From assembly GCF_004345365.1 (NCBI RefSeq), contig NZ_SLVF01000015.1, positions 1 to 64,000 of the forward strand: a DNA stretch of 64,000 nt, in the 5' to 3' direction. Under the pieces are notes generated by a model. That model searched no databases and was not told the DNA's origin. It saw nothing but the letters and a program-made list of their open reading frames with translations. Positions 6,447 through 47,239 of the stretch are shown piece by piece (position 1 is the stretch's first letter; every line of letters starts with the position of its first letter). Source of the stretch: Kribbella sp. VKM Ac-2568 (GTDB taxonomy: Bacteria > Actinomycetota > Actinomycetes > Propionibacteriales > Kribbellaceae). The position numbers were made by a program, and so were the translations under genes.

Positions 6447-7010
6447 CTGACGATCTCGGCGTACCGTCAGCGTCCGCCCGAGGCGCGGCAGTGGCTGCGG
6501 CTGGATGCGACCTATGTGGTGGGCACGTTGGCGACGACTCCTCCGATCCCGGTCGAGGTGCCGGAGACATGGCGGGAGTTCTTGGTCGCCCAGGCCGAGC
6601 GCTGGCCCTCGGTGTTCGGCTATGTGGCCGATGATGTGATCTCGGCCGGCACCCGCACCCGCTGGAAGCCATGCTCGCAACATTCCCGGATGAGACGTTG
6701 CCGTTGGCTGACTCGCAGGTGCGGAACTATTCGTGGGTCATGGTCAGGGCTGCCGGTGTTCTTCAACGGTTGGGAGGCATTGAAGCCGTTCGCGCGCGGG
6801 GAACGTTCGCCGCCGCGACTGTGCTGCCGTCAGGCGGGGCGGTATTACAGGCGACGCCGCGTCTGTCGGATTGCGAACGTGATGCGGTGTTGCGGGTGTT
6901 CGAGGCGCTGGCGCCGGTACTGCCCGAGAAGGCACCGTGGCCCGATGACTTCGACCGGTTCAAGTTGTACTACTTGCGCGGCGCCGCGCAAGTAGTACGG
7001 CTAGCAACAT
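6447..7010 (+). pseudogene. Unknown actinobacterial protein, frameshifted
   Basis: The coding signal begins near 6447 (LTISAYRQRPPEARQWLRLDATYVVG; the codon is CTG, so the true start may be mutated). It runs to about 6660 (VFGYVADDVISAGTRT), then continues in the next frame as EAMLATFPDETLPLADSQVRNYSWVMVRAAGVLQRLGG to DDFDRFKLYYLRGAA near 6985. The join corresponds to one lost base near 6663. No domain is recognised. It ends in a perfect 32-base palindrome (6967-6998), and the open frame then runs on without a stop into the next small gene. Confidence 0.5.
6967..6998. repeat. Perfect 32-bp palindrome with no loop
   Basis: GTACTACTTGCGCGGC is followed at once by its exact reverse complement: 16+16 bases with no spacer. 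It has no T-tract and no loop, so it is not a usual terminator. It lies at the 3' end of the frameshifted gene. Confidence 0.9.
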
Positions 7011-7016
7011 CCGCAA

Positions 7017-7038
7017 CGCGGCAGATGCGTGCGTCTGA
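7017..7038 (+). repeat. Dispersed intergenic repeat, copy 1
   Basis: CGCGGCAGATGCGTGCGTC. This is one of about a dozen related short sequences between 7 and 24 kb (see findings). It sits just before the ribosome site of the gene at 7052. Confidence 0.6.
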
Positions 7039-7051
7039 GAAAGGTGGTTCC

Positions 7052-7336
7052 ATGCCCGCAGTCATCGCCCGAATCGTGTCGTTGGAAAGCGATCCGTTCC
7101 CCGGTTGGGCTCATGTCGCACTGGAGTTGGCTGACGGCAGCAGCGTGGAAGTGCACGAAAAGCAGCCAGTGCTCGGGATCCAAGCACCGGCGCCAGGAGC
7201 AGTCGTTCATCTCGCCTGCGAGGTCATTAAGGACGTGCCGGACGGCGTGACCGTCCGATTGCTGGCCGGTGTAGAGACGACCGATGGGCGTGCCACCGTC
7301 AAGGTGAACCGGAACCAGATCATTGACTTCGAGTAG
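7052..7336 (+). CDS. Small hypothetical protein
   Basis: 94 residues from ATG 7052, with AAGGTGG five bases upstream. The sequence MPAVIARIVSLESDPFPGWAHVALELADGS alternates hydrophobic and charged residues and looks all-beta. It ends VKVNRNQIIDFE. There is no signal peptide or membrane segment. The frame is open upstream into the decayed gene before it, but the ribosome site and the intervening repeat argue for an independent start. Function unknown. Confidence 0.6.
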   Translation: MPAVIARIVSLESDPFPGWAHVALELADGSSVEVHEKQPVLGIQAPAPGAVVHLACEVIKDVPDGVTVRLLAGVETTDGRATVKVNRNQIIDFE

Positions 7337-7366
7337 TTCGTCCACCGCCGGTGCCGTACGACCGGA

Positions 7367-7425
7367 CATCGGCATGAGCGCCCTTTACCCTCGGCGGCAG
7401 ATCCGGTAGTTGGAGCGACGCGTCA
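7367..7425 (+). repeat. Dispersed intergenic repeat, long copy
   Basis: CATCGGCATGAGCG is followed by CGGCAGATCCGGTAGTTGG and GCGACGCGTCAGCGCACCC. The second half closely matches the copy at 23607-23662. Confidence 0.65.
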
Positions 7426-7503
7426 GCGCACCCGCGCGGTCCGTCGAGACGCAGGCGGGTTAATGGTTCGACTGGCGGGCCGCCGGGGCTGAGGATGACT
7501 GCG

Positions 7504-8022
7504 ATGACTACTACTTCCCCCCGAGCGGTTCGCTTCGTCGAGATGACCAGTACCGCGCTGAGCGCGTTGCTGGCCGACGACCGTCCCGCGGCACAGACAG
7601 AGCTCGGCTTCCCACTCGGCGACGAGTTCCTCACTGACCGGGCCAAGTGGCTATGGCGGTACCGCCTCGATCAGCTGACCCGGGATCCGAGCACCTTCGG
7701 GTGGCTCGTCAAGCTCGTCGTGGCCGACGGGATCGTGGTCGGCTATGCCGGTTTCCACGGTCCACCGGACGAGGCCGGCATGGTGGAGATCGGCTACACA
7801 GTCGACCCGCCGTACCGGCGACAGGGTTTCGCCAAGGCGATCTTGACCGCGCTCCTGGAGCGTGCGGCGGCCGAACCCGCAGTACGGACCGTGCGGGCCA
7901 CGATCAGCCCCACCAACCAGGCATCGCTGGCCACAATCGCCGGCTTCGGCTTCGTCGAGAACGGCGAACAGTGGGATGAGGAGGACGGCCTGGAGCTCAT
8001 CTTCGAACGCCCCAGCCGCTGA
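7504..8022 (+). CDS. GNAT-family N-acetyltransferase
   Basis: 172 residues from ATG 7504 (GAGG nine bases upstream); an in-frame ATG at 7495 overlaps that site. The acetyl-CoA fold is visible: LVKLVVADGIVVGYAGFHGPPDEAGMVEIGYTVDPPYRRQGFAKAILTAL, where YRRQGFA matches the Q/R-x-x-G-x-G/A pyrophosphate-binding motif A. It is followed by ATISPTNQASLATIAGFGFVENGEQ, typical of motif B in the RimJ-like group. It would transfer acetyl from acetyl-CoA to an amine, but the substrate is unknown. It stands alone between repeat-rich gaps. Confidence 0.85.
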   Translation: MTTTSPRAVRFVEMTSTALSALLADDRPAAQTELGFPLGDEFLTDRAKWLWRYRLDQLTRDPSTFGWLVKLVVADGIVVGYAGFHGPPDEAGMVEIGYTVDPPYRRQGFAKAILTALLERAAAEPAVRTVRATISPTNQASLATIAGFGFVENGEQWDEEDGLELIFERPSR

Positions 8023-8184
8023 CACGAACGTGGCTCGCGGCATCAGCGAGGACCTCGACGACCACCGTCGGTCGCACGTTCGTCGGCGGCTTCTTCGCGT
8101 CCTTGCCACCCCAGCCTGTCCTGGGTGTCGAAGGAGGACTGGCACGGATCAGGGGGACGGGGCGGGCTTGTACAGTTCTCGGAT

Positions 8185-8203
8185 CGCGGCAGATGAGTGC
8201 GTC
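8185..8203 (+). repeat. Dispersed intergenic repeat
   Basis: CGCGGCAGATGAGTGCGTC, differing by one base from the copy at 7017. It lies in the 238-base gap before the methyltransferase gene. Confidence 0.6.
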
Positions 8204-8260
8204 GCCGACTGGACCGCGCGCCTGGTTGGCGCACACCTGCGACCCGGGTAGAAACCTGTC

Positions 8261-8980
8261 ATGCCAGATTCGGTGAGCAAGTCCGCTGCCCCAGTCGCTG
8301 ACTACGACAGTTTCGCGGCCGCGTACTCGGCCAGTAACGAGAGCAATCTCTTCAATGCTTACTACGCGCGTCCGGAGATGATTCGTCTCGCCGGCGACGT
8401 CGCGGGCCTGGAGATTCTCGACGCCGGATGCGGGTCAGGCCCCTTGATGGAAGCTCTGCGTAGCAAGGATGCGGTCGTGTCGGGCTTCGACCTGAGCCCC
8501 GCCATGGTCGAACTCGCCCGCCAAAGGCTCGGCGAGGACGCGGACGTGAGAGTCGCAGACCTTGGTGCGCCCCTGCCCTATCCCGACGACGCGTTCGACC
8601 TCGTCGTCGCATCGCTGTCCCTGCACTACGTCAAGGACTGGGCCGCGGCACTGGCCGAGCTGCGGCGTGTGCTCAAACCCGGCGGTCGGCTCATCGGCTC
8701 GATCATCCACCCCACGGTCTACGCGATTGTGTACCCCGAGGCCGACTACTTCGCCCTCACGCAGTACTCCGAGGACTACGACTTCGGCGAAGGGACCGTG
8801 TGGATGACCTACTGGCACCGACCCCTGCAGGACGTCATCAACACGTTCATCGATGCGGGGTTCGGCATCAAGACGGTCACTGAGCCGCCGCCCGCGGCCA
8901 ACACCCCAGCGGAACTGCTGCCCACCGCGGACGGTCGCTCATTTATCTGCTTCCTGTTCTTCGAGCTGGAAGCGCGCTGA
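8261..8980 (+). CDS. Class I SAM-dependent methyltransferase
   Basis: 239 residues from ATG 8261. It has the Rossmann fold of methyltransferase group 11: motif I EILDAGCGSGPLMEAL (~residue 50), an acidic residue binding the ribose at VVSGFDLSPAMVELA, DVRVADLGAPLPYPDDAFDLVVASLSLHYVKDW, and LKPGGRLIGSIIHP. The C-terminal part, with WMTYWHRPLQDVINTFIDAGFG, fits small-molecule methyltransferases of the UbiE/BioC type. The substrate cannot be inferred. There is no operon partner. Confidence 0.88.
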   Translation: MPDSVSKSAAPVADYDSFAAAYSASNESNLFNAYYARPEMIRLAGDVAGLEILDAGCGSGPLMEALRSKDAVVSGFDLSPAMVELARQRLGEDADVRVADLGAPLPYPDDAFDLVVASLSLHYVKDWAAALAELRRVLKPGGRLIGSIIHPTVYAIVYPEADYFALTQYSEDYDFGEGTVWMTYWHRPLQDVINTFIDAGFGIKTVTEPPPAANTPAELLPTADGRSFICFLFFELEAR

Positions 8981-9275
8981 ACAGGTGCGGCGCTGGCTGT
9001 GACCAAGGCAGCCCTGCCCGGCTGGTGCATGACGCGCTCCAGCATCCGCACGTCGGCAGGAGCGAACCCACGGACAGCTAGGTCCGGACGTTTGAGGCTG
9101 CGAGCGGCTTGACAACGGTGCGGTCTCGAGCAGGTCGCGATACGTGGCAGGACGACGGCTCCGAGCGCTTGACCGTGGAGGTCGTCAAGGCCATCGAAGG
9201 TCGGCATCTAGGGCGGCTCGTTCCAGACCACGCGCCCAACGAATAGCGGCACCATTCCTTGGCTCGCGATCCAGG
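8981..9275. other. Gap with no confident gene
   Basis: A minus-strand frame (about 9207-8980, ...LAVRGFAPADVRMLERVMHQPG...) has protein-like composition but no ribosome site or known domain. It may be a gene remnant. Confidence 0.3.
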
Positions 9276-9857
9276 TCAACCGGCTGCTGACCTGGCGGCC
9301 GCCTCGATCTCCTCGCGGCGCTCCCTCCAGAAGGCTGGGTCGTGCCGCTGCTCGGCCATGTCCTCCGCGTCGGTTCCTACCGCTCCGTCGAGCGCTTCGC
9401 GCAGGATGTCGGCGTGGCCGGCGTGCCGACTGGTTTCGGCGAGCAGGTGGACGAGGATGTTGAACAAGGGCACCTCGGCGTCCTGCCACCAGGCGACGCG
9501 GCCCGTGGCATCGAGGGCGAGGGCCTCCACCGTCGCGTCGCTGTGGTCCCACACCCGTCGGTAGCGGTCGACGATGTCGCTGCGGGCCTCGCGCTCGGTC
9601 GCCCACATGTCGGCGAGTCGCTCGGCCTCGACGTCCCACCGAGGCAGGGGTTCGGGAAAGGGACGGTCGAAGACCTCGCCGAGGTACCTGGCCTCCCATG
9701 TCGCCAGGTGCTTGACCAGGCCCAGCAGGTTGGTCCCGGTGACGGTCAGCGGGCGACGGACGTCGTACTCGGAAAGACCGTCGAGCTTGGCAAGCACCGC
9801 CTCGCGCTCGTGCCTCAGGTAGTTGTACAAGTTGGCCTTCGCGGCGTCGTCAATCAT
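9276..9857 (-). CDS. DinB-family (DUF664) protein
   Basis: 193 residues from ATG 9857 (MIDDAAKANLYNYLRHEREAVLAKLDGL). It has a four-helix DinB-like fold with the metal-ligand histidine pattern: NLLGLVKHLATWEARYLGEVF near residue 45 and LFNILVHLLAETSRHAGHADILREAL near residue 145. The family includes mycothiol-dependent thiol transferases and damage-induced proteins. The His-x3-His arrangement (RHAGHADILRE) supports metal binding. The exact reaction is unknown. Confidence 0.85.
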   Translation of the reverse strand: MIDDAAKANLYNYLRHEREAVLAKLDGLSEYDVRRPLTVTGTNLLGLVKHLATWEARYLGEVFDRPFPEPLPRWDVEAERLADMWATEREARSDIVDRYRRVWDHSDATVEALALDATGRVAWWQDAEVPLFNILVHLLAETSRHAGHADILREALDGAVGTDAEDMAEQRHDPAFWRERREEIEAAARSAAG

Positions 9858-10104
9858 GGGACAGCACCCTGCCACCAGTGCCACCAGGTGGCAGCAGATC
9901 GCGAGTCAGGCGCTTGTCGACGGCAATGGCTTCCTGCAGGCCAAACCACGAACGAGGAGGCCAAAGGTTAGCGCGCGTGCAACTTTCGGGGGATCGGTAA
10001 GACCCGACCGGTGAAGATTCTGAGCACGAGTAACGAGCCGGCCCCGAGCCCGGCTCTGCGGTTCGGGAAACAACCTCAATTCGGCACGACAGGAAGACCT
10101 GCTT

Positions 10105-11027
10105 TCAAGTGGCGGAGGCCATGTATGCGGCGAGGATGTAGTTGGGATGGCGGTCGAGGTTCTTGCGGGCGCGGTCATAGCGCATGGTGGTTCGTGGGTC
10201 GGCGTGGCGGACGGCGATTTGTACATCACGCAGGTCAACGCCGGCGTCGAGCATCGTGGTGACGAAGGTATGCCTGAGCATGTGCGGGTGCATCCGCGGA
10301 AGCTTGATACCTGCTTGTTCGGCGAGGCGGCGCAGTCGGCGGGTTGCGCAGTGCCGGTCCATCCGCGTGCCCCGACAGGTCAGCAGCATCGGTCCGGCGG
10401 TCCGCTCGTCGATGGCCCGCTCAATGGCACGGCCTACGGCTGGGGGAAGCGGTACAAGCACGATCTTGTCGCCCTTGCCATGCACGCGGAGAACCCGATG
10501 GCCGTGCTCCTCGCCGAGGTCCTCGATGTCGCTGCCGGTAGCCTCGAAGATCCGAAGTCCGAGCAGCCCCAACATCGAGACGAGGGCGAAGTCGCAGCGG
10601 TTGGGCGACTGCCTCCCGGCGGTCAACACGGCCTCGAACTGCAGGTGTGTCAGCCCGAGCGTCGGGGATTCGGCCGGCACGTGCGGGCGTCGCACATACT
10701 CGGCTGGGGAGTGCTCAAGGACACGTCTATCACGCACGTCTGTTAGAAGCCCGCGACGACCGACATGCGTCGGGACACCGTCGATGGCCCGTACCGGCGC
10801 ACTTCTTGTAGCCAGCGGATGTAGAGCTCAACATGTGGCCGGCTCACTGCGAGAGGGTCCAGGTCGCGCAGATCGCACCACACGAGATACCCCCGCAGGT
10901 CCGACTCGGTGTGGATCCGGGACTGACCTTTGAACCGAGCCAGGTAGGCGGCGACGGCTATCCGTAGGACGCGAGACGTCGTGACGACGACACCGGAGAC
11001 GGCCGGGCCCGGTTGTGAGATCTCCAT
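10105..11027 (-). pseudogene. Tyrosine recombinase/integrase, broken
   Basis: The N-terminal core-binding part (start 11027, VLRIAVAAYLARFKGQSRIHTESDLRGYLVWC...STVSRRMSVVAGF) ends at a TAA at 10743. The catalytic part resumes one base out of frame at about 10737 (VLEHSPAEYVRRPHVPAESPTLGL...). It carries the full active site: Arg in LGLLGLRIFEATG, Lys in HGKGDK, HMLRHTF, the second His in VRHADPRTT and the Tyr nucleophile in MRYDRAR. Both a nonsense codon in the expected F-Y-R/Q-T-C-V-I-D stretch and a one-base deletion are present, so this is real decay. It is likely the leftover integrase of a lost or frozen element in this region. Confidence 0.85.
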
Positions 11028-11178
11028 TCCCTCAGTGCCCAGGGCGCGGCAGGTCGCGTCAACCGCCTCACAAGTTCACCATCGCGGCTATGAGCGGACG
11101 TACGACGGTCCACAGCGCCGGCACGTCACTGCGGAATCGGGACGTGCGCCAACCGCAATAGTCGATATCCTCGCCGAC

Positions 11179-11535
11179 ATGGCCATCGCTCGCTTGCCCC
11201 TCATCGCTATCGACTGTCCCGTTCCTGGTGCGCTCGCCAGGTTCTACGGCGCGATGCTGGAATGGAAGATCGACGTCTCCACCGACCGGGCTTCGGTTTG
11301 CCCTGAGGACGGCCAGTGCATCGCCTTCCACCGGGTGGCTGATTACACGCCGCCGACGTGGCCGACCCAGGAGCGACCCAAGCAGATGCACCTCGACATG
11401 CTCGTTGACGACCTCGACGCAGCCGAGGCGGCAGTGATCGATCTCGGTGCAACCAAACATCCGGACCAGCCCGGTACGTCCTACAGGGTCTTCCTGGACC
11501 CTGCAGGTCACCCCTTCTGCCTTTGTCTGGAATGA
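11179..11535 (+). CDS. VOC (glyoxalase-like) domain protein
   Basis: 118 residues from ATG 11179. Beta-alpha-beta modules: MAIARLPLIAIDCPVPGALARFYGAMLEWKI, then RPKQMHLDMLVDDLDAAEAAVIDLGATKHPDQPG, then YRVFLDPAGHPFCLCLE. The His of QMHLD and the terminal Glu of CLCLE fit the metal or substrate sites of the family. It is close to small VOC proteins annotated as bleomycin-resistance or glyoxalase-like. The actual ligand is unknown. It faces away from the broken integrase. Confidence 0.85.
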   Translation: MAIARLPLIAIDCPVPGALARFYGAMLEWKIDVSTDRASVCPEDGQCIAFHRVADYTPPTWPTQERPKQMHLDMLVDDLDAAEAAVIDLGATKHPDQPGTSYRVFLDPAGHPFCLCLE

Positions 11536-11611
11536 TCCAGAAGGGAGCCCTCGGCGTAGCGCTCGCACTCATCGGCTGCCCGCGCCTTCCTATCTGCGGC
11601 ATGAGAGTCCG

Positions 11612-11947
11612 TCATCGAGGCGGCTGGTCTTGCTGCTCTTGCCACAAGAGCGTCCGCGCCTCCTTGGTGTTCAGCAGCTCCAGCCCACGCCGAGCCCAGT
11701 CGCGAAGTAGTTGATCCTGGCCGGTCGGGGCATTGGACAGCACCGGTAGTGCCGCAGGAGTCCGAACTTCGCCTATGAGTTCGAGCAGCCAGCACTTCAT
11801 CCCATGGTCCTGCTCCACGCCGTATGCGGCGATGAGGTCGTCGAGGCGTTCGGCTGCAACCTCTTGCACAAGTCCGAAGCCGTCCTCTTGCAACTGAGGG
11901 TCGTGCTTGCGCATGAGACTCATGCCACCCGCGAACTGGTCGACCAT
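11612..11947 (-). CDS. Small HEAT-like helical repeat protein
   Basis: 111 residues from ATG 11947 (MVDQFAGGMSLMRKHDPQ). Helical repeats are visible: LVQEVAAERLDDLIAAYGVEQDHGMKCWLLELIGEVRTPAALPVLSNAP and LLRDWARRGLELLNTKEARTLLWQ. This matches short HEAT-repeat proteins of unknown role, probably a protein-binding scaffold. The start is uncertain because no good ribosome site is seen. A similar but unlinked protein is encoded at 14415-14864. Confidence 0.65.
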   Translation of the reverse strand: MVDQFAGGMSLMRKHDPQLQEDGFGLVQEVAAERLDDLIAAYGVEQDHGMKCWLLELIGEVRTPAALPVLSNAPTGQDQLLRDWARRGLELLNTKEARTLLWQEQQDQPPR

Positions 11948-12004
11948 GGGGGGTGACTCTATGGCACCCCACCTGGCCAAATGCCCAGCGCATATCCACG
12001 CGAA

Positions 12005-12026
12005 CGGCGGCAGATGCGGATGTTGG
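12005..12026 (+). repeat. Dispersed intergenic repeat
   Basis: CGGCGGCAGATGCGGATGTT, matching the second half of the copies at 13134 and 7367. It lies just upstream of the gene at 12062. Confidence 0.55.
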
Positions 12027-12061
12027 GCGTGAGTGGATGTGGGCGTGAGAAGCTCGCGGCC

Positions 12062-12589
12062 ATGCCTGAACTGACGCCCCAGCAGCGCGAGTCGCTCGAA
12101 CGCTTCAAGGTGTGGAAGCACAGACCCAAGGTGAAGGCGACCGACGACGCGAGCGTGCCGTCCCCGCAGCAGGTCTACGCGGAGATGATGAAGGCAACGT
12201 TCGGCCCATTGCTTCGCGGTCAGGGTCTGCGTGGCTCCGGAGGTCGATTTGAACTGCCGTCCGACAACTACTGGGCTCTACTCGGCTTTCGGAAGTCGGC
12301 ATACAGCGACGGCCAAGAGGTCCAGTTCACTGTGAACCTTTCCGTGATCAGCCGCGTCGCGTGGGCTGAACATGCCGCTGAGTCGCCGTCGCTGGGTGAG
12401 CGGCCGAAGCCCACGTTCGTCTATGGATCGTGGGCTACCCAGGCGCGACTCGGGGTGCTAACGCCCGAAGGCAGCGACAAGTGGTGGCGTATCGTCCGCG
12501 GGGTTGACCCAGGTCCAGTGGCCGAGGACGCGGTCTCGGACCTGCTGAGGTACGGCCTGCCCTGGCTGCGCGAACGGGCATCTACCTAG
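12062..12589 (+). CDS. DUF4304-like protein
   Basis: 175 residues from ATG 12062. YAEMMKATFGPLLRGQGLRGSGGRFELPSDNYWALLGFRKSAYSDGQEVQFTVNLSVIS is the DUF4304 pattern, in which the core reads F-x-P-x-L-x-x-x-G-x-K/R then an aromatic strand and L-x-x-Q-x-S. It continues with GERPKPTFVYGSWATQARLGVLTPEGSDKWW. The family is common in actinobacteria, often near toxin or defence genes, but has no assigned biochemistry. No linked partner is seen here. Confidence 0.75.
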   Translation: MPELTPQQRESLERFKVWKHRPKVKATDDASVPSPQQVYAEMMKATFGPLLRGQGLRGSGGRFELPSDNYWALLGFRKSAYSDGQEVQFTVNLSVISRVAWAEHAAESPSLGERPKPTFVYGSWATQARLGVLTPEGSDKWWRIVRGVDPGPVAEDAVSDLLRYGLPWLRERAST

Positions 12590-41622: not shown

Positions 41623-43131
41623 GTGATGGCGGACCAGGTCGAGCTGATCACGTACGCCGACCGGCTCGGGGGAGACCTCGCCGGTCTGCGCGAGGTACTG
41701 CGTGGACCGCTCGCGGGGCTCTTCGGCGGTGTCCACGTGCTGCCGTTCTTCCAGCCGTACGACGGGGCCGATGCCGGATTCGACCCGGAGGACCACGCCG
41801 AGGTGGATGAGCGGCTCGGCACCTGGGCGGACGTCGCCCGCCTGGCCGAGGAGTTCGACCTGATGGTCGACGTGATCGTCAACCACGTCTCGGCCAACTC
41901 CCGGGCTTTCCGGGACTGGCTCGCGAAGGGGGAGCATTCGGAGTACGGGGGGATGTTCCTGACCTTCGCGGGGGTCTTCCCGGACGGCGCGACCGAGGAG
42001 GTGCTGCTGCGCCTCTATCGGCCGCGCCCCGGGCTGCCGTTCACGCCGTACCAGTTCGCGGACGGCACCAGGCGGCTGGTCTGGACGACGTTCACGTCGC
42101 AGCAGATCGACGTCGACGTCCGGAACGCGATCACGCAGGAGTACCTCGTCAAGGTGCTCGACCGGTTGGCCGCGGCCGGCGTACGGCGGGTGCGTCTCGA
42201 CGCGGTCGGGTACGCCGTGAAGACGCCGGGACTGACCTCGTTCATGACTCCCGAGACCTTCGCCTTCATCGACGAGATGACCGGGTGGTGCCGCGAGCGC
42301 GGACTCGAGGTACTGGTCGAGGTGCACTCCTACTACCGGCGGCAGCTCGAGATCGCTCAGCAGGTCGACCGGGTGTACGACTTCGCGCTCCCGCCGCTGG
42401 TGCTGCACGCGCTCACGGCCGCGGATGCCGATCCGCTGCTGGCCTGGATGGACCTGCGACCGGTCAACGCGGTCACCGTGCTGGACACCCACGACGGCAT
42501 CGGCGTCATAGACGTCGGCGCTGACGGGCCTCGCCCCGGGCTGCTGGCGCCCGAGCAGATCGACCGGCTGGTCGAGGCGATTCACAAGAGCAGCGGCGGG
42601 ACCTCGCGGCAGGCCACCGGCGCGGCAGCCTCGAACGTCGACCTCTACCAGGTGAACTGCACCTTCTACGACGCGCTCGGCCGCGACGATGACCGCTACC
42701 TGCTGGCTCGCGCCCTGCAGCTCTTCGCGCCCGGCATCCCGCAGGTGTACTACGTGGGCCTCCTCGCCGGTACCAACGACATGGACTTGCTTGCCCGTAG
42801 CAACGTCGGCAGGGACGTCAACCGGCACTACTACACCCGCGAGGAGATTGACCTGGAGCTCCGACGCCCTGTGGTACAAGCACTGCTGGGGCTCATCCGG
42901 TTCCGCAACTCGCATCCCGCCTTCGGAGGGACGTGCACCGTCACCGGCGGCGGCCCACAGCTGACCATGACCTGGACCCACGCCGACGAGCGTGCGACCC
43001 TCGACGCCGCGCTCGAGACCGCGTCCGCAACCATCACCTGGACCGACGAAGACGGCATCCGAACAGCCGCGCTTGACCAACTCCCTGAAGCTGCCAGGTT
43101 CTCAGGAGACCTCCAGAGCTTCGGAGACTGA
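41623..43131 (+). CDS. Sucrose phosphorylase (GH13_18)
   Basis: 502 residues; GTG 41623 or ATG 41626, after GGGAGG. The opening ELITYADRLGGDLAGLREVLRGPLAGLFGGVHVLPFFQPYDGADAGFDPEDHAEVD is diagnostic of sucrose phosphorylases and their close relatives. Catalytic residues: nucleophile Asp in VRRVRLDAVGYA, acid/base Glu in LEVLVEVHSYY, stabilising Asp in VTVLDTHDGI. The VYYVGLLAGTNDMDLL segment is conserved. It would phosphorolyse sucrose to glucose 1-phosphate and fructose. The substrate could also be sucrose 6-phosphate or glucosylglycerate, which this subfamily includes. It ends overlapping tail to tail with the histidine kinase by 30 bases. Confidence 0.88.
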   Translation: MMADQVELITYADRLGGDLAGLREVLRGPLAGLFGGVHVLPFFQPYDGADAGFDPEDHAEVDERLGTWADVARLAEEFDLMVDVIVNHVSANSRAFRDWLAKGEHSEYGGMFLTFAGVFPDGATEEVLLRLYRPRPGLPFTPYQFADGTRRLVWTTFTSQQIDVDVRNAITQEYLVKVLDRLAAAGVRRVRLDAVGYAVKTPGLTSFMTPETFAFIDEMTGWCRERGLEVLVEVHSYYRRQLEIAQQVDRVYDFALPPLVLHALTAADADPLLAWMDLRPVNAVTVLDTHDGIGVIDVGADGPRPGLLAPEQIDRLVEAIHKSSGGTSRQATGAAASNVDLYQVNCTFYDALGRDDDRYLLARALQLFAPGIPQVYYVGLLAGTNDMDLLARSNVGRDVNRHYYTREEIDLELRRPVVQALLGLIRFRNSHPAFGGTCTVTGGGPQLTMTWTHADERATLDAALETASATITWTDEDGIRTAALDQLPEAARFSGDLQSFGD

Positions 43132-44295
43132 GGTCGGCAAAGTCGCGGCGACGATGAACCTGTCCTGATCGGAGCCGGCGTCCAGGTGGCCTCCGACGAG
43201 TCGGGCGCGTTCCTGTAGCCCGTACAGGCCCCTACCTGTCGAGAGCTGTCGTGTCTCGGAGGGCCGCGCGCCGGTGACGTGGTTCGAGATACGGAGGCTG
43301 AGCTGGTTCGGCGTCCAGCCCACGGCGAGCTCGATCCGGGCAGCGGGCTCGCCGTGTTTGACAGCGTTCGTCAGGGACTCCTGCGCGATTCGGTGCGCCG
43401 CGAGGCGGATGCTGGGGTCGAGTTCCGTCGGCGTTCCTGTGACCACCAGCGCGACCTCGTGGCCGCTGTCGCCGACCTGCGCGATCAGTTGCCGAACCCC
43501 TGGAAGTAGGTCGGGGATCTCACCAGAACCGGCGGACTCCGTTTCCAGAGGTCCGCTGCCGGTCTCCTCGATCAGCGTCAGCATCCTCCGGAGTTCGTTG
43601 ATGGCCTGCTGGCTGAGCCGGCCGATCGAGTCCATGGACTGAGTCGCGCGGGCCGGATCGCGGTCCATCACCCGAGCGGCGCCGGCCGCCTGGATGGCGA
43701 TCAGGCTGATCGAATGCGCCACGATGTCGTGGAGCTCGCGAGCGATCCGCTGCCTCTCCGCCTTCACCGCTTCAGCCGCGAGGGCCGCTCGCGAAGCTTC
43801 CAGGTACTCCGCGCGCTGCCGTGCTGCCGAGCTCCGTCGCCCCGCGGCCCACGTCGCGAGGTCGAGCAACACGAACACCGTCGCCACTGCGACCACTGCG
43901 AATGGGCGTGGTCCGGGCCCGGACAGCGTCGCTTCGTAGGCGGTCGAGACCGCATTCGCCGCGAGGGTTGCGGCCAAGCACTGAAGGGCTCGCCGCCGAC
44001 TGCTCCACGCCGCTGCCGTGTAGAGGGCGACGAGCAAGGTGAGTAGTGGTCGCGTGCCGATGACCACGGTGCAGAGGATCGAGTAGCCGCTGAGAATGAG
44101 GCTGACAGCAACGGGTGCCCGCCTGCGGAAGGCCAGCAACGGCACCGCGACGGCTCCTGCCTCGATGATCACGGCCGCGGGGATCCCGGTCCCCGCCCAG
44201 CCGTACCGATCGGGATCGTCCGACAGTTGCGAGAAGAGCGCGATGTCCACGCCCGCCGCGACGACCGCGACCAGCCAATCACGCGCCGACGGCAC
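43102..44295 (-). CDS. NarL-family sensor histidine kinase
   Basis: 397 residues. The N-terminal membrane region has several hydrophobic helices (WLVAVVAAGVDIALFSQL, GIPAAVIIEAGAVAVPLLAF, VAVSLILSGYSILCTVVIG, LLTLLVALYTAAAWSS, FAVVAVATVFVLLDLATW). HisKA_3: RQRIARELHDIVAHSISLIAIQAAGAARVMDRD, phospho-acceptor His in ELHD. HATPase: AAHRIAQESLTNAVKHG and GRGLYGLQERARLVGGHLDAGSDQD; the glycine loop is GRGLYG. The gene upstream (44298-44852) ends three bases before, so they form one operon. The response regulator at 45622 is the probable partner. Confidence 0.9.
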   Translation of the reverse strand: MPSARDWLVAVVAAGVDIALFSQLSDDPDRYGWAGTGIPAAVIIEAGAVAVPLLAFRRRAPVAVSLILSGYSILCTVVIGTRPLLTLLVALYTAAAWSSRRRALQCLAATLAANAVSTAYEATLSGPGPRPFAVVAVATVFVLLDLATWAAGRRSSAARQRAEYLEASRAALAAEAVKAERQRIARELHDIVAHSISLIAIQAAGAARVMDRDPARATQSMDSIGRLSQQAINELRRMLTLIEETGSGPLETESAGSGEIPDLLPGVRQLIAQVGDSGHEVALVVTGTPTELDPSIRLAAHRIAQESLTNAVKHGEPAARIELAVGWTPNQLSLRISNHVTGARPSETRQLSTGRGLYGLQERARLVGGHLDAGSDQDRFIVAATLPTSVSEALEVS

Positions 44296-44297
44296 GG

Positions 44298-44852
44298 TCA
44301 GTCCCAGCGAAAGATCCGGCAGAGCCCATCCGTCACCGACTGCACGTCAGACACCGTCGCCCGAAAAGACTGCGGTACCGCGGTCTCCGGCGCGGCGGCG
44401 GGTGCTGGTGAGGTGGTCGCCATCGGGGCGCCGGCTTGCACAGGTGCGAACCGTGAGAAACCTCCCAGGGACTGCCTGACATTTCGCGATGTGGTCAATT
44501 CCTGTGCCAACTGGGCTGCGGCGACGCTCGAGTCCGGGGCCGACAGAGTGGGAGGAGCTGTCAGCGTGATGGCGCCCACGTTGGTGTCCAGGTCGGCACC
44601 TTGAAAACCGAAGATGTCGACCTTCCGCGGTGTGCACCACACGGTCCGTGCAGAGGCTCCGTCGTTGACAGCGACGGCGAACGGTGTCGAGTAGCCCAAC
44701 GAGGCGGGCCACGGCGCGACCAGGGCGACGAGCGCGGGCGGGCCATTGTCCTGAGGCACCCGGACGACGACGCCGCCGGTACCGCTGACAGGTCCCGCCG
44801 AGTCGTAGAGCACGACCCGCGGTGCTTCGGCATCTCCTGAATCGACGGTCAC
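44298..44852 (-). CDS. Unknown protein co-transcribed with the histidine kinase
   Basis: 184 residues from GTG 44852, fixed by a strong GGGGGGAGGAAGTC site. VTVDSGDAEAPRVVLYDSAGPVSGTGGVVVRVPQDNGPPALVALVAPWPASLGYSTPFAVAVNDGASARTVWCTPRKVDIFGFQGADLDTNVGAITLTAPP is mostly beta. A Pro/Ala-rich linker (VQAGAPMATTSPAPAAAPETAV) and a short C-terminal part ending GLCRIFRWD follow. No signal peptide or membrane helix. I do not recognise the family. Its position three bases before the kinase suggests a linked role. Confidence 0.6.
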   Translation of the reverse strand: MTVDSGDAEAPRVVLYDSAGPVSGTGGVVVRVPQDNGPPALVALVAPWPASLGYSTPFAVAVNDGASARTVWCTPRKVDIFGFQGADLDTNVGAITLTAPPTLSAPDSSVAAAQLAQELTTSRNVRQSLGGFSRFAPVQAGAPMATTSPAPAAAPETAVPQSFRATVSDVQSVTDGLCRIFRWD

Positions 44853-44985
44853 GACTTCCTCCCCCCGGCTGACACAGGCCCATCGTGGCACTGCGCGAGG
44901 CCCGGGAACAGGCGCGAGGACCGCGTTAATCACTGCCGGAAATCCCCAGGCACGGCGATGAAAAGTCACCTGCTGGACGTGACGC

Positions 44986-45025
44986 GGTCCTCGCTCCGAT
45001 CCTGTGCGGGATCGGGGCGAGGACC
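44986..45025 (-). terminator. Terminator hairpin after the LecA-like gene
   Basis: A 17-bp stem: GGTCCTCGCTCCGATCC against GGATCGGGGCGAGGACC, with a single G-T pair and a 6-base loop, 23 bases past the stop of the gene ending at 45048. It separates the lectin-like gene from the kinase operon. Confidence 0.85.
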
Positions 45026-45047
45026 ACGGTTCGCAGTACGACGGAGA

Positions 45048-45434
45048 TCAGCGCCAGACCTGGATCTTCACCAGGAAGGAGCCATCGCCGTTGCCCGGGC
45101 GGTCGTCGTTGATGCGGAACGACAGGCGGGTCCGGCCCGGGCCGAGGGTGGCGTTCTGGTAGGTGCGGCGCATGCCCTCGCCGATCCAGAAGTAGCCGTC
45201 CTCGGCGGTCATGCCGAGCACACCGAAGGGTGCGGCGCCCGGCAAGGGGGAGTCGTTGTTCGCCGACCACCCCGGCCAGCCGTTCGGTCCGTTGCGACCG
45301 GTGAACCAGACGCCGGCCCAGATCGAGCCGCTGACGCTGATGTCGACCCAGTCCCCGTTCTGCAGTTCGACGTTCGCGTCGACGTCGGAGTCGAACTCCC
45401 TGATGGTGACGTACTTGTCCACGACGAGAGCCAT
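45048..45434 (-). CDS. Small beta protein resembling LecA (PA-IL) lectin
   Basis: 128 residues from ATG 45434 (GGAGGGACCATC upstream). MALVVDKYVTIREFDSDVDANVELQNGDWVDISVSGSIWAGVWFTGRNGPNGWPGW, then PFGVLGMTAEDGYFWIGEGMRRTYQNATLGPGRTRLSFRINDDRPGNGDGSFLVKIQVW. The order of features matches LecA of Pseudomonas: a strand with G-x-x-V-D-I, G-x-N-G-W-P-G, a G-x-L-G-M strand, and the calcium/sugar loop N-D-x-x-G-N-x-x-G-S-F-x-V-x-I. No signal peptide, as with LecA. It likely binds a sugar or calcium. It sits between response regulator and kinase genes. Confidence 0.7.
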   Translation of the reverse strand: MALVVDKYVTIREFDSDVDANVELQNGDWVDISVSGSIWAGVWFTGRNGPNGWPGWSANNDSPLPGAAPFGVLGMTAEDGYFWIGEGMRRTYQNATLGPGRTRLSFRINDDRPGNGDGSFLVKIQVWR

Positions 45435-45554
45435 GATGGTCCCTCCCTCTTCGAGACCTCGCGGGCTGCGAGATCGATCACCCCGAGAGTGGGCTTCCGG
45501 GTCGGTCCCGGTCGTCTGCCGGAAGGCAGAACCTCGGCTCTGCCTCCAGACAGA

Positions 45555-45631
45555 GCGATCAGGCCGTCGGACAAGGCAATCAGTCCGGCAGGTTGGGCGA
45601 TCAGTACGGCAGGCAGGGCGATCAGGCGCGG
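45555..45631. repeat. 21-bp tandem repeat
   Basis: About 3.5 units of 21 bases, each starting GCGATCAG or GCAATCAG and containing CCGGCAGG or TACGGCAGG. The last unit overlaps the stop codon of the response regulator (TCA at 45622). Confidence 0.85.
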
Positions 45632-46287
45632 GAGCGGACCAGGTCGTGCCGGTAGGCGAACGCGATCGCCTGGGCGCGATCGCGCACACCGAGCTTGGTG
45701 AGGATGTGGGAGACGTGGGTCTTCACTGTGCCCACCTCGATCACCAGCCGCGCGGCAAGCTCCTGGTTCGACAGCCCCTCGGCCGCCAGCAGCAGCACTT
45801 CCCGCTCCTTGGGCGTCAACCGCCCGACCTCCGGCGGCTCACGCGAGGCGGCGGTCTGGTCGCGTCCGTAGCTCTCCACCAGCAGGCGGACGATCCGCGG
45901 CTCCAGCGCCACATCGCCACGAGCGACAGTCCGGATCGCGCTGACCAGATCGGTGGCAGTCCGCGACTTCAGGACGAAGCCGGCGGCGCCCGCGCGCAAC
46001 GACGCCCATACGGCTTCATCCAGGTCGAACGACGTCAACATCACCACTGCCGGCGCGCCCAATCCCATCCGCGCCCGCAGTGTCGCCGTCGCCTCGATGC
46101 CGTCCGTGCCAGGCATCCGAACATCCATCAGTACTACGTCCGGCCGCAGCCGGGCCGCCTCGACGACGGCGGCTGATCCGTCGGAGCACTCTCCGACGAT
46201 GTCCAGGTCCGGCTCGGCCGAGAGGACCATCGCGATGCCGGAACGCACCAGGTCCTCGTCGTCGACGACGAGGACCCGGATGCTCAC
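45622..46287 (-). CDS. NarL/LuxR response regulator
   Basis: 221 residues from GTG 46287. Receiver: MSIRVLVVDDEDLVRSGIAMVLSAEPDLDIVGECSDGSAAVVEAARLRPDVVLMDVRMPGTDG with phospho-Asp ~54, conserved Thr/Ser in VVMLTSFDLDEAV and Lys in AAGFVLKSRT. HTH: RLTPKEREVLLLAAEGLSNQELAARLVIEVGTVKTHVSHILTKLGVRDRAQAIAFAYRH. It is the intact counterpart of the truncated regulator at the left edge. It is likely paired with the kinase at 43102, though two other genes lie between. Confidence 0.92.
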   Translation of the reverse strand: MSIRVLVVDDEDLVRSGIAMVLSAEPDLDIVGECSDGSAAVVEAARLRPDVVLMDVRMPGTDGIEATATLRARMGLGAPAVVMLTSFDLDEAVWASLRAGAAGFVLKSRTATDLVSAIRTVARGDVALEPRIVRLLVESYGRDQTAASREPPEVGRLTPKEREVLLLAAEGLSNQELAARLVIEVGTVKTHVSHILTKLGVRDRAQAIAFAYRHDLVRSRA

Positions 46288-46361
46288 GTGAACTCCTTGG
46301 CGGCAGGATTCGCCTCAGTGTGGCACAGGCGCAGCCGCCATCAACCCCCAGAAGATCCCTT

Positions 46362-47027
46362 TCAGTCCTGCGTCCAGGTGAAGGTGACGACGTCACCGGG
46401 CAGCAACAGATCCAGGCTGCCGACCGAGAAGATGTCGGCCCAGATGCCGAGGAACTTGGGCTTGCGAAAGGTGAGTTGCTGGTGGTTCTGCACCTGCTGC
46501 GACCAGAGCCCGTTCTCGGCCGAGCCATGAGCCGGCGCCGTGACGGTCCACTCGCCGCCGGTGCCGTCGCGCAGTACGAAGGCCTTGTCCCAGCCGCACT
46601 CGTCGACGAGCCGGAAGGCGACCACGCTGGGGTCGGTGGCGCCGCGGTCGACGTGCCAGCTGACCAGGTCGCCTTCAGCGCTGGCGAACACGCCGTCAGC
46701 CTTGCCGGCCCAGTCGGTCGCCACGTCCTGGACGTGCCGGGTAGAGGGGATCACCACGCCCGGAGCCAGCAGGCCGTACAGGGGATAGGTGAGGAAGACC
46801 CCCTGCCCCTTGTCGGACATGCGGATGGCCTGCACCTCCCAGGCGACATGCAGGGCGAGCGCGGCCGCGACGATCGGCGAGGCGAAGGCGCTGACTCCCA
46901 GCGCCGCCAGTTTCGCGCCGATCGCCTTGACGTCGGTCGAGGTACTGAGGAACGAGACCAGATCCTGGGTCTCCTGGTGATCCAGCTCCATGAGAAGTCC
47001 ATAGGGCTGTTCGGTGATGGTCGGCAT
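46362..47027 (-). CDS. Unknown protein with hydrophobic helix and beta domain
   Basis: 221 residues from ATG 47027 (GGAGG five bases upstream). N-terminal helical part: MPTITEQPYGLLMELDHQETQDLVSFLSTSTDVKAIGAKLAALGVSAFASPIVAAALALHVAWEVQAIRMSDKG, containing one hydrophobic helix pair. The C-terminal beta part is VVAFRLVDECGWDKAFVLRDGTGGEWTVTAP...LGIWADIFSVGSLDLLLPGDVVTFTWTQD. No signal peptide. It is not recognised. It precedes the response regulator by 75 bases on the same strand, so it may be part of the same signalling locus. The layout is reminiscent of small membrane-active proteins but this is speculative. Confidence 0.6.
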   Translation of the reverse strand: MPTITEQPYGLLMELDHQETQDLVSFLSTSTDVKAIGAKLAALGVSAFASPIVAAALALHVAWEVQAIRMSDKGQGVFLTYPLYGLLAPGVVIPSTRHVQDVATDWAGKADGVFASAEGDLVSWHVDRGATDPSVVAFRLVDECGWDKAFVLRDGTGGEWTVTAPAHGSAENGLWSQQVQNHQQLTFRKPKFLGIWADIFSVGSLDLLLPGDVVTFTWTQD

Positions 47028-47239
47028 GAGTGCCTCCGAGATGTGCTCCGCCGCCAGGACGGATGCCGGAACCTCCGACCCCTCCAAGCTCGTCTCCACC
47101 CCGCCCACCCACGTCAGCCCACAGTCCTAACCCCACCTCTATCCAAAGGCAGAGACTCCACCGGTCAGCCGTCGCTCGCGACTGGCTGAAGGCGCGCGAC
47201 GGCAGGCGGGGGTGACGGTACGGCGGGTCGCGCGGGGGG

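What the first reader, a model, noticed from the sequence alone, without database searches (positions are those of the whole stretch)
43102..47027. Two-component locus interleaved with a LecA-like protein and two unknown proteins
On one strand, in order: unknown protein with a hydrophobic helix and beta domain, response regulator, LecA-like small lectin with its own terminator, unknown beta protein, histidine kinase. The kinase and regulator are separated by two small proteins with no signal peptides. Pairing a sensing system with a cytoplasmic lectin-like protein and two unrecognised proteins is not a standard arrangement and could be a new secreted-lectin or contact-response system.
Basis: partly seen in the sequence, partly recalled or inferred. 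Interest (0 to 1): 0.55.

Follow-up and report, generated by a model that had tools for sequence, protein, structure and literature searches.

The report
Kinase-linked lectin gene cassette in Kribbella
Five neighbouring genes in an actinobacterium (Kribbella) combine a membrane sensor and its gene switch with a small lectin-type protein and two uncharacterised proteins; sensors of the same branch sit beside related genes in three other bacteria, which suggests a shared sensing-and-response module, although what it senses and does is unknown.

Summary
On the minus strand of a Kribbella genome lie U1 (hydrophobic stretch), a NarL-type regulator, a LecA-like protein, U2 and a HisKA_3 kinase. The small protein is a remote PA-IL/LecA homologue: its 9-row profile hits only that family in the PDB, and a confident model (pLDDT 92.7) matches LecA, PllA and EclA. 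The exact five-gene order was found nowhere else, but gene content recurs. K. pittospori has regulator and lectin plus a kinase. Pseudarthrobacter has a kinase-regulator pair near one caspase / U1-type / LecA-like fusion. A Streptomyces plasmid has U2-like, kinase, small protein, U1-type, regulator. These four kinases, none found by a kinase search, form one clade (100/99) among 48. Eight further loci carry a LecA-like or U1-type domain without the pair, so 4 of 12 show the link. An 18-bp palindrome lies twice before lecA (also in K. pittospori) and once before U1, with no site in 800 kb elsewhere in the genome. Best reading: a self-regulating membrane-sensor module inducing a glycan-binding protein and a membrane-associated partner. 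Binding, export and stimulus are untested; a role in conflict or cell death is only suggested by caspase fusions. New variant of a known kind; interest 0.55.

The parts
46362..47027 (-). U1, 221 aa: N-terminal ~95-aa domain with hydrophobic stretch (U1N) plus C-terminal part, probably beta
   Evidence: full-length homologue in 1 of 393 other class genomes (L069); U1N also in L010 fusion, Streptomyces plasmid L115 and L116
45622..46287 (-). NarL/LuxR-type response regulator, 221 aa
   Evidence: 78% to K. pittospori, 51% to Pseudarthrobacter, 50% to Streptomyces L115
45048..45434 (-). LecA-like (PA-IL family) protein, 128 aa
   Evidence: profile hits only PA-IL family in PDB; AF2 pLDDT 92.7; Foldseek top LecA 1l7l E 4.6e-6
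44298..44852 (-). U2, 184 aa from the GTG with a ribosome-site-like stretch (223 aa from 44969); unknown, 2 bp before the kinase
   Evidence: same-position relative in Streptomyces L115, Z 7.7 against 2000 shuffles, BLASTP E only 0.64
43102..44295 (-). Sensor histidine kinase, 397 aa, several hydrophobic segments then HisKA_3/HATPase_c
   Evidence: clade with the three other module kinases
45538..45555 (.). 18-bp palindrome 1 before lecA, candidate regulator site
   Evidence: same distance (103 bp) in K. pittospori
45514..45531 (-). 18-bp palindrome 2 before lecA
   Evidence: same distance (79 bp) and 6-bp spacing in K. pittospori
47137..47154 (-). 18-bp palindrome before U1, 109 bp from the start codon
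45547..45625 (-). 21-bp tandem repeat, 3.8 copies, from the regulator's stop into palindrome 1
   Evidence: not reported for K. pittospori L009 4500-8200
44965..45050 (-). strong hairpin after lecA, possible transcript end
   Evidence: no T-run

Best explanation
A self-regulating two-component module. The kinase, whose N-terminal part is mostly hydrophobic segments, senses a membrane or envelope condition; the regulator is phosphorylated and binds 18-bp palindromes before lecA and U1, raising lectin, U1 and (through U1-RR) its own level. The LecA-like protein binds glycan, perhaps with calcium, and U1 associates with membrane, the two acting together as the output; U2 is an accessory of the kinase. 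Shown: gene content, predicted LecA fold, kinase clade, locus-specific palindromes, partial recurrence. Inferred: regulator binding to the palindromes, operon structure, glycan binding, joint action of U1 and lectin, role of U2, the stimulus.
For: LecA family and fold. The kinases of four loci form one clade, 100/99, among 48 kinases, the 44 others all from the own genome and G015. The Pseudarthrobacter kinase picks the window kinase first of 27 in the own genome (264 against 158 bits for the next) and the lectin-side kinase first of 26 in G015 (172 against 161, a small margin). The sensor part is 44% identical to Pseudarthrobacter's, the kinase part 39%. U1N-type and LecA-like parts lie in one Pseudarthrobacter protein near the pair. 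The Streptomyces plasmid carries U2-like, kinase, small protein, U1N, regulator. Palindromes: 3 sites in the locus, 0 in 800 kb of the same genome, same distances before lecA in K. pittospori. The DNA-binding parts of the window and K. pittospori regulators are 59 of 66 identical.
Against: The exact gene order was found only here. U1 and U2 were not found in G015/K. pittospori. Of 12 distinct loci with a LecA-like or U1N domain, 4 have the pair (for the 8 without). K. pittospori's regulator and lectin are near (78%, 91%) but its kinase is far (37-39%) and on the other strand. The Streptomyces small protein is not lectin-like by sequence (Z 0.4). The palindrome was not found above chance in L010 or L115. 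BLASTP between U2 and its Streptomyces counterpart gives E 0.64, and the reversed counterpart still gives Z 3.5. The U1 model is poor. The calcium loop differs in the window's group.
Confidence: 0.6

Rival explanations
1. Lectin, U1 and U2 are signal-side accessory proteins: they modulate the kinase (as co-sensors or inhibitors) and are not the output.
For: U2 ends 2 bp before the kinase start and its Streptomyces counterpart also directly precedes the kinase; all lie among the signalling genes.
Against: LecA-like or U1-type domains occur without this pair in 8 of 12 loci, among them in a caspase protein, in a cytolysin-domain protein or with a signal-type start, which fits effectors better. 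The palindromes make lecA and U1 likely targets.
Confidence: 0.2
2. A conflict or cell-death module: lectin and U1 act as a split form of the Pseudarthrobacter caspase / U1N / LecA-like fusion, damaging the own or a rival membrane when the envelope is disturbed.
For: Caspase proteins with a LecA-like end in two loci (L010, L064; both also match PADLOC's caspase model), one of them near the same kinase clade; patchy distribution (lectin in 3 of 38 genomes) at a variable site.
Against: No caspase or other enzyme domain found in the window's five genes beyond the kinase; no PADLOC match for U1, lectin or U2; membrane damage by U1 is a guess from hydrophobicity.
Confidence: 0.25
3. Unrelated genes collected at a variable site; only the kinase-regulator pair is a unit.
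For: Exact order not conserved; the region beside LacI differs in 8 of 8 relatives read.
Against: Kinase clade, same-position U2 relative, U1N-LecA fusion, shared palindromes.
Confidence: 0.12

Closest known systems
PA-IL / LecA lectin family (LecA, PllA, EclA)
   Same: Profile and predicted fold match; no signal peptide (for LecA this is recalled)
   Different: 15-19% identity in the fold matches; no Pfam match; calcium loop differs in the window's group; sugar ligand unknown; beside a two-component pair
NarL-type two-component systems with membrane-embedded kinases (DesK, LiaS; comparison recalled)
   Same: HisKA_3 kinase with hydrophobic sensor part, receiver plus GerE regulator
   Different: Kinase and regulator are separated by a lectin and U2; separate kinase clade among the kinases compared; below the NCBIfam cut-off for all named kinases and regulators shown
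EclA of Enterobacter (PMC11875179, passages seen)
   Same: LecA-type domain joined to another domain
   Different: There the partner is a second carbohydrate-binding domain; here relatives join caspase or cytolysin domains. [quoted passage not shown]
Caspase-bearing conflict systems of multicellular prokaryotes (PMC7159879, passages seen)
   Same: Caspase proteins occur in two relatives' loci
   Different: No caspase in the window's five genes; the terms LecA and PA-IL do not occur in that paper's main text

Membership tests
PA-IL / LecA | profile similarity to LecA, PllA, EclA | tested here: met
   5 of 5 PDB sequences listed up to E 10 are this family, best 8.6e-6, LecA 3.1e-4; a search with the single sequence did not find it
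PA-IL / LecA | jelly-roll fold of LecA | tested here: met
   11 of 11 matches at E up to 0.001 are LecA, PllA or EclA; TM 0.64-0.80; a prediction, not a solved structure
PA-IL / LecA | calcium and galactose pocket residues | tested here: inconclusive
   by eye: the invariant Asp (9 of 9 rows) lines up with the Asp before PllA's calcium loop; the first of the next two calcium-side positions is Asn in 6 and Asp in 3 of 9, the second is Gly in 6 (window included) and Asn in 3; the loop is two residues shorter; equation with LecA Asp100/Asn107 (named in PMC9321714) rests partly on recall; sugar contacts not compared
PA-IL / LecA | match to a Pfam family | tested here: not met
   no Pfam family for the window, L019, L020 or L063 proteins; whether the library holds a PA-IL model was not checked
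NarL-type two-component system | HisKA_3 kinase and receiver + GerE regulator | tested here: met
   above curated cut-offs
NarL-type two-component system | phosphotransfer between this kinase and this regulator | not testable with these tools
   needs purified proteins
Caspase conflict system | caspase in the locus | tested here: not met
   none in the window's five genes; present in relatives L010, L064

The most novel reading that the evidence does not exclude
An undescribed, horizontally mobile actinobacterial module in which an envelope-sensing two-component pair controls a glycan- or membrane-binding protein and a U1-type hydrophobic partner that together act as a membrane effector in conflict or self-killing, split in Kribbella and Streptomyces and fused to a caspase in Pseudarthrobacter.
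Probability: 0.3. Interest if true: 0.8.

Novelty: new variant of a known kind. Interest (0 to 1): 0.55.

Why it matters
It links LecA-type lectins, with solved members from Pseudomonas, Photorhabdus and Enterobacter, to a sensor pair in actinobacteria and to caspase-domain proteins, and it gives two protein families without a Pfam match (U1N, U2) a testable setting. The palindromes make the regulatory claim directly testable.

Tried and rejected
Single-sequence searches of PDB and Pfam for the lectin and U1 gave nothing useful; U2 likewise. The lectin was not found in plasmids, phages or viral contigs, U1 not in plasmids. The window kinase has no plasmid match at 1e-50 and none at 1e-50 among 393 other class genomes, but 4 candidates per listed genome were scored there, so that absence is weak. 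A weak U2 hit in G028 with a stop inside and three weak U1 hits were taken as chance. The U1 model was too poor for a fold search. A thought that a 138-aa gene in L064 is EACC1, put in a note, was dropped: no Pfam match. The 112-aa Streptomyces protein resembles the perforin C2 domain only weakly (E 0.13). A kinase tree of 10 rows (95/98) was replaced by one of 48 (100/99). For the latter, of the 27 and 26 kinase hits, 4 and 4 were not fetched; ORFs under 250 or over 750 aa, and rows sharing a stretch with one already taken, were dropped.

Full report
Locus. The window lies in a Kribbella genome (genus from the K. pittospori match; own handle G000). G015 is taken to be K. pittospori because the contig length and lectin identity agree. 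Gaps: U1-RR 74 bp, RR-lecA 187, lecA-U2 195, U2-HK 2. Four of the five have a ribosome-site-like stretch; HK has none evident and follows U2 closely (by eye).

The small protein. Alone it matches no Pfam family and nothing useful in the PDB. A 9-row alignment of its family hits only PA-IL proteins, PllA 8.6e-6, LecA 3.1e-4. The AlphaFold2 model has pLDDT 92.7, and its 11 Foldseek matches at E up to 0.001 are all LecA, PllA or EclA. An Asp invariant in 9 of 9 rows lines up with the Asp before PllA's calcium loop; the next calcium-side pair is Asn-Gly in the window's group and Asp-Asn in 3 rows. Calcium binding is therefore open.

Distribution. The lectin is in 3 of 38 Kribbella genomes, one as the end of a thiol-cytolysin-domain protein; in 3 of 394 class and 3 of 396 phylum genomes, the own one counted each time (10 candidates scored per listed genome). 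U1 is in 1 of 38, the own; in the class sample 5 of 394 at E up to 0.01, of which only the own and G169 (E 4.7e-30) are convincing. G169 is the only one of 35 in its family. The kinase has a match at 1e-40 in 2 of 38, the other being G015's beside its lectin. LacI is in 37 of 38 and the GH3 gene lies beside it in 28 of 30 loci, the own included. In 8 relatives' 18-kb stretches beside LacI there is no U1, lectin, U2 or sucrose phosphorylase-like gene at E up to 1e-4; one of the 8 (G010) has another kinase-regulator pair, 29% and 43% identical, whose kinase falls outside the module clade. So the site is variable.

Relatives. K. pittospori (L009): RR 78% and lectin 91% on one strand, HK 37% on the other; no U1 or U2 in G015. 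Pseudarthrobacter (L010): RR 51%, HK 41%, near a 614-aa protein with a caspase domain, a U1N-type stretch and a LecA-like end; BLASTP between U1 and that protein is weak (E 0.012). Streptomyces sp. NBC_00564 plasmid (L115), found with the U1N-LecA query: U2-like, HK, 112-aa protein, U1N protein, RR. U2 against its counterpart: Z 7.7, 0 of 2000 shuffles; 7 control proteins Z -0.9 to 0.6; the counterpart reversed Z 3.5; BLASTP E 0.64; phmmer E 6.6e-5 against a set of 12 proteins. U1N: window U1 against L010 Z 6.4, L115 11.3, L116 7.1; the L069 homologue 7.7, 5.9 and 3.5. Twelve distinct loci carry a LecA-like or U1N domain. Four have the pair: window, K. pittospori, Pseudarthrobacter, Streptomyces. 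Eight have no kinase or regulator of this kind at E up to 1e-4 in the DNA held: L021 (round L008), L011, L019 (5.6-kb contig with transposase-like ORFs), L020, L063 (5-kb contig), L064, L069 (only the DNA-binding part of a LuxR-type gene, 39%) and L116.

Kinase clade. None of the four kinases was found by a kinase search. In a 48-row tree they are one side of a branch with 100/99 support, 0 of 500 label shuffles as clustered; the 44 other rows are all from G000 and G015. The window kinase is nearer to the Pseudarthrobacter and Streptomyces ones than to K. pittospori's, so it did not simply descend within Kribbella (inference). Reciprocal search.

Promoters. The upstream regions of lecA in the window and K. 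pittospori are more alike than in each of 100 resampled controls (best 30-base stretch 21 identical, control maximum 20). A pattern fitted to palindrome 1 of both, with one mismatch allowed, finds only the lecA and U1 sites in 64 kb (4 matches, as both strands count; expected 0.07) and none in 800 kb of two other contigs. I had already seen the U1 site when I wrote it, so the test is not fully blind. A looser pattern drawn from all sites, and so circular, gives three sites and none in the 800 kb. In K. pittospori both lecA palindromes lie 103 and 79 bp from the start, 6 bp apart, as in the window; as these regions are homologous, that is not independent evidence, while the U1 site is. No such site was found near K. 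pittospori's regulator start (up to 4 mismatches), and none above chance in L010 or L115.

Novelty. Paper searches. No listed title or abstract start names a LecA-type lectin with an adjacent two-component pair in actinobacteria. Only listings were seen, apart from passages of PMC7159879, PMC11875179 and PMC9321714. Most subscription papers and all bioRxiv preprints are missing from the library.

Verdict. A real association, recurrent in four loci, with a specific regulatory hypothesis; the biochemical function is not shown.

Noticed in passing
L010:4504-6348, 49-1572, 6568-8406, 9166-10086, 10483-12321: Caspase / U1N-type / LecA-like fusion near M14 and M6 peptidase genes, a RimK-like ATP-grasp gene and a second caspase gene (Pseudarthrobacter).
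   Followed up: partly
L064:11332-12651: 439-aa caspase protein with a strongly hydrophobic stretch and LecA-like end, near a subtilase gene.
   Followed up: partly
L008:1429-3042: Thiol-cytolysin-domain protein with a LecA-like end in another Kribbella.
   Followed up: no
L011:5856-6309: LecA-like gene with a signal-type start in another frame than the rest; could be real or a sequencing error.
   Followed up: no
L116:7881-9131: U1N-type domain followed by a weak BNR-repeat match (below cut-off) on a Streptomyces goshikiensis plasmid, near a Tn3 transposase gene.
   Followed up: partly
L019 (5561 bases): 62% lectin relative on a short contig with transposase-like ORFs.
   Followed up: no
window:45547-45625: 21-bp tandem repeat, 3.8 copies, upstream of lecA.
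   Followed up: partly
window:3-1495: A second regulator-kinase pair at the window's edge; its kinase is outside the module clade.
   Followed up: yes
L115:1566-4877: Patatin/DUF3376 gene upstream of the Streptomyces module.
   Followed up: no
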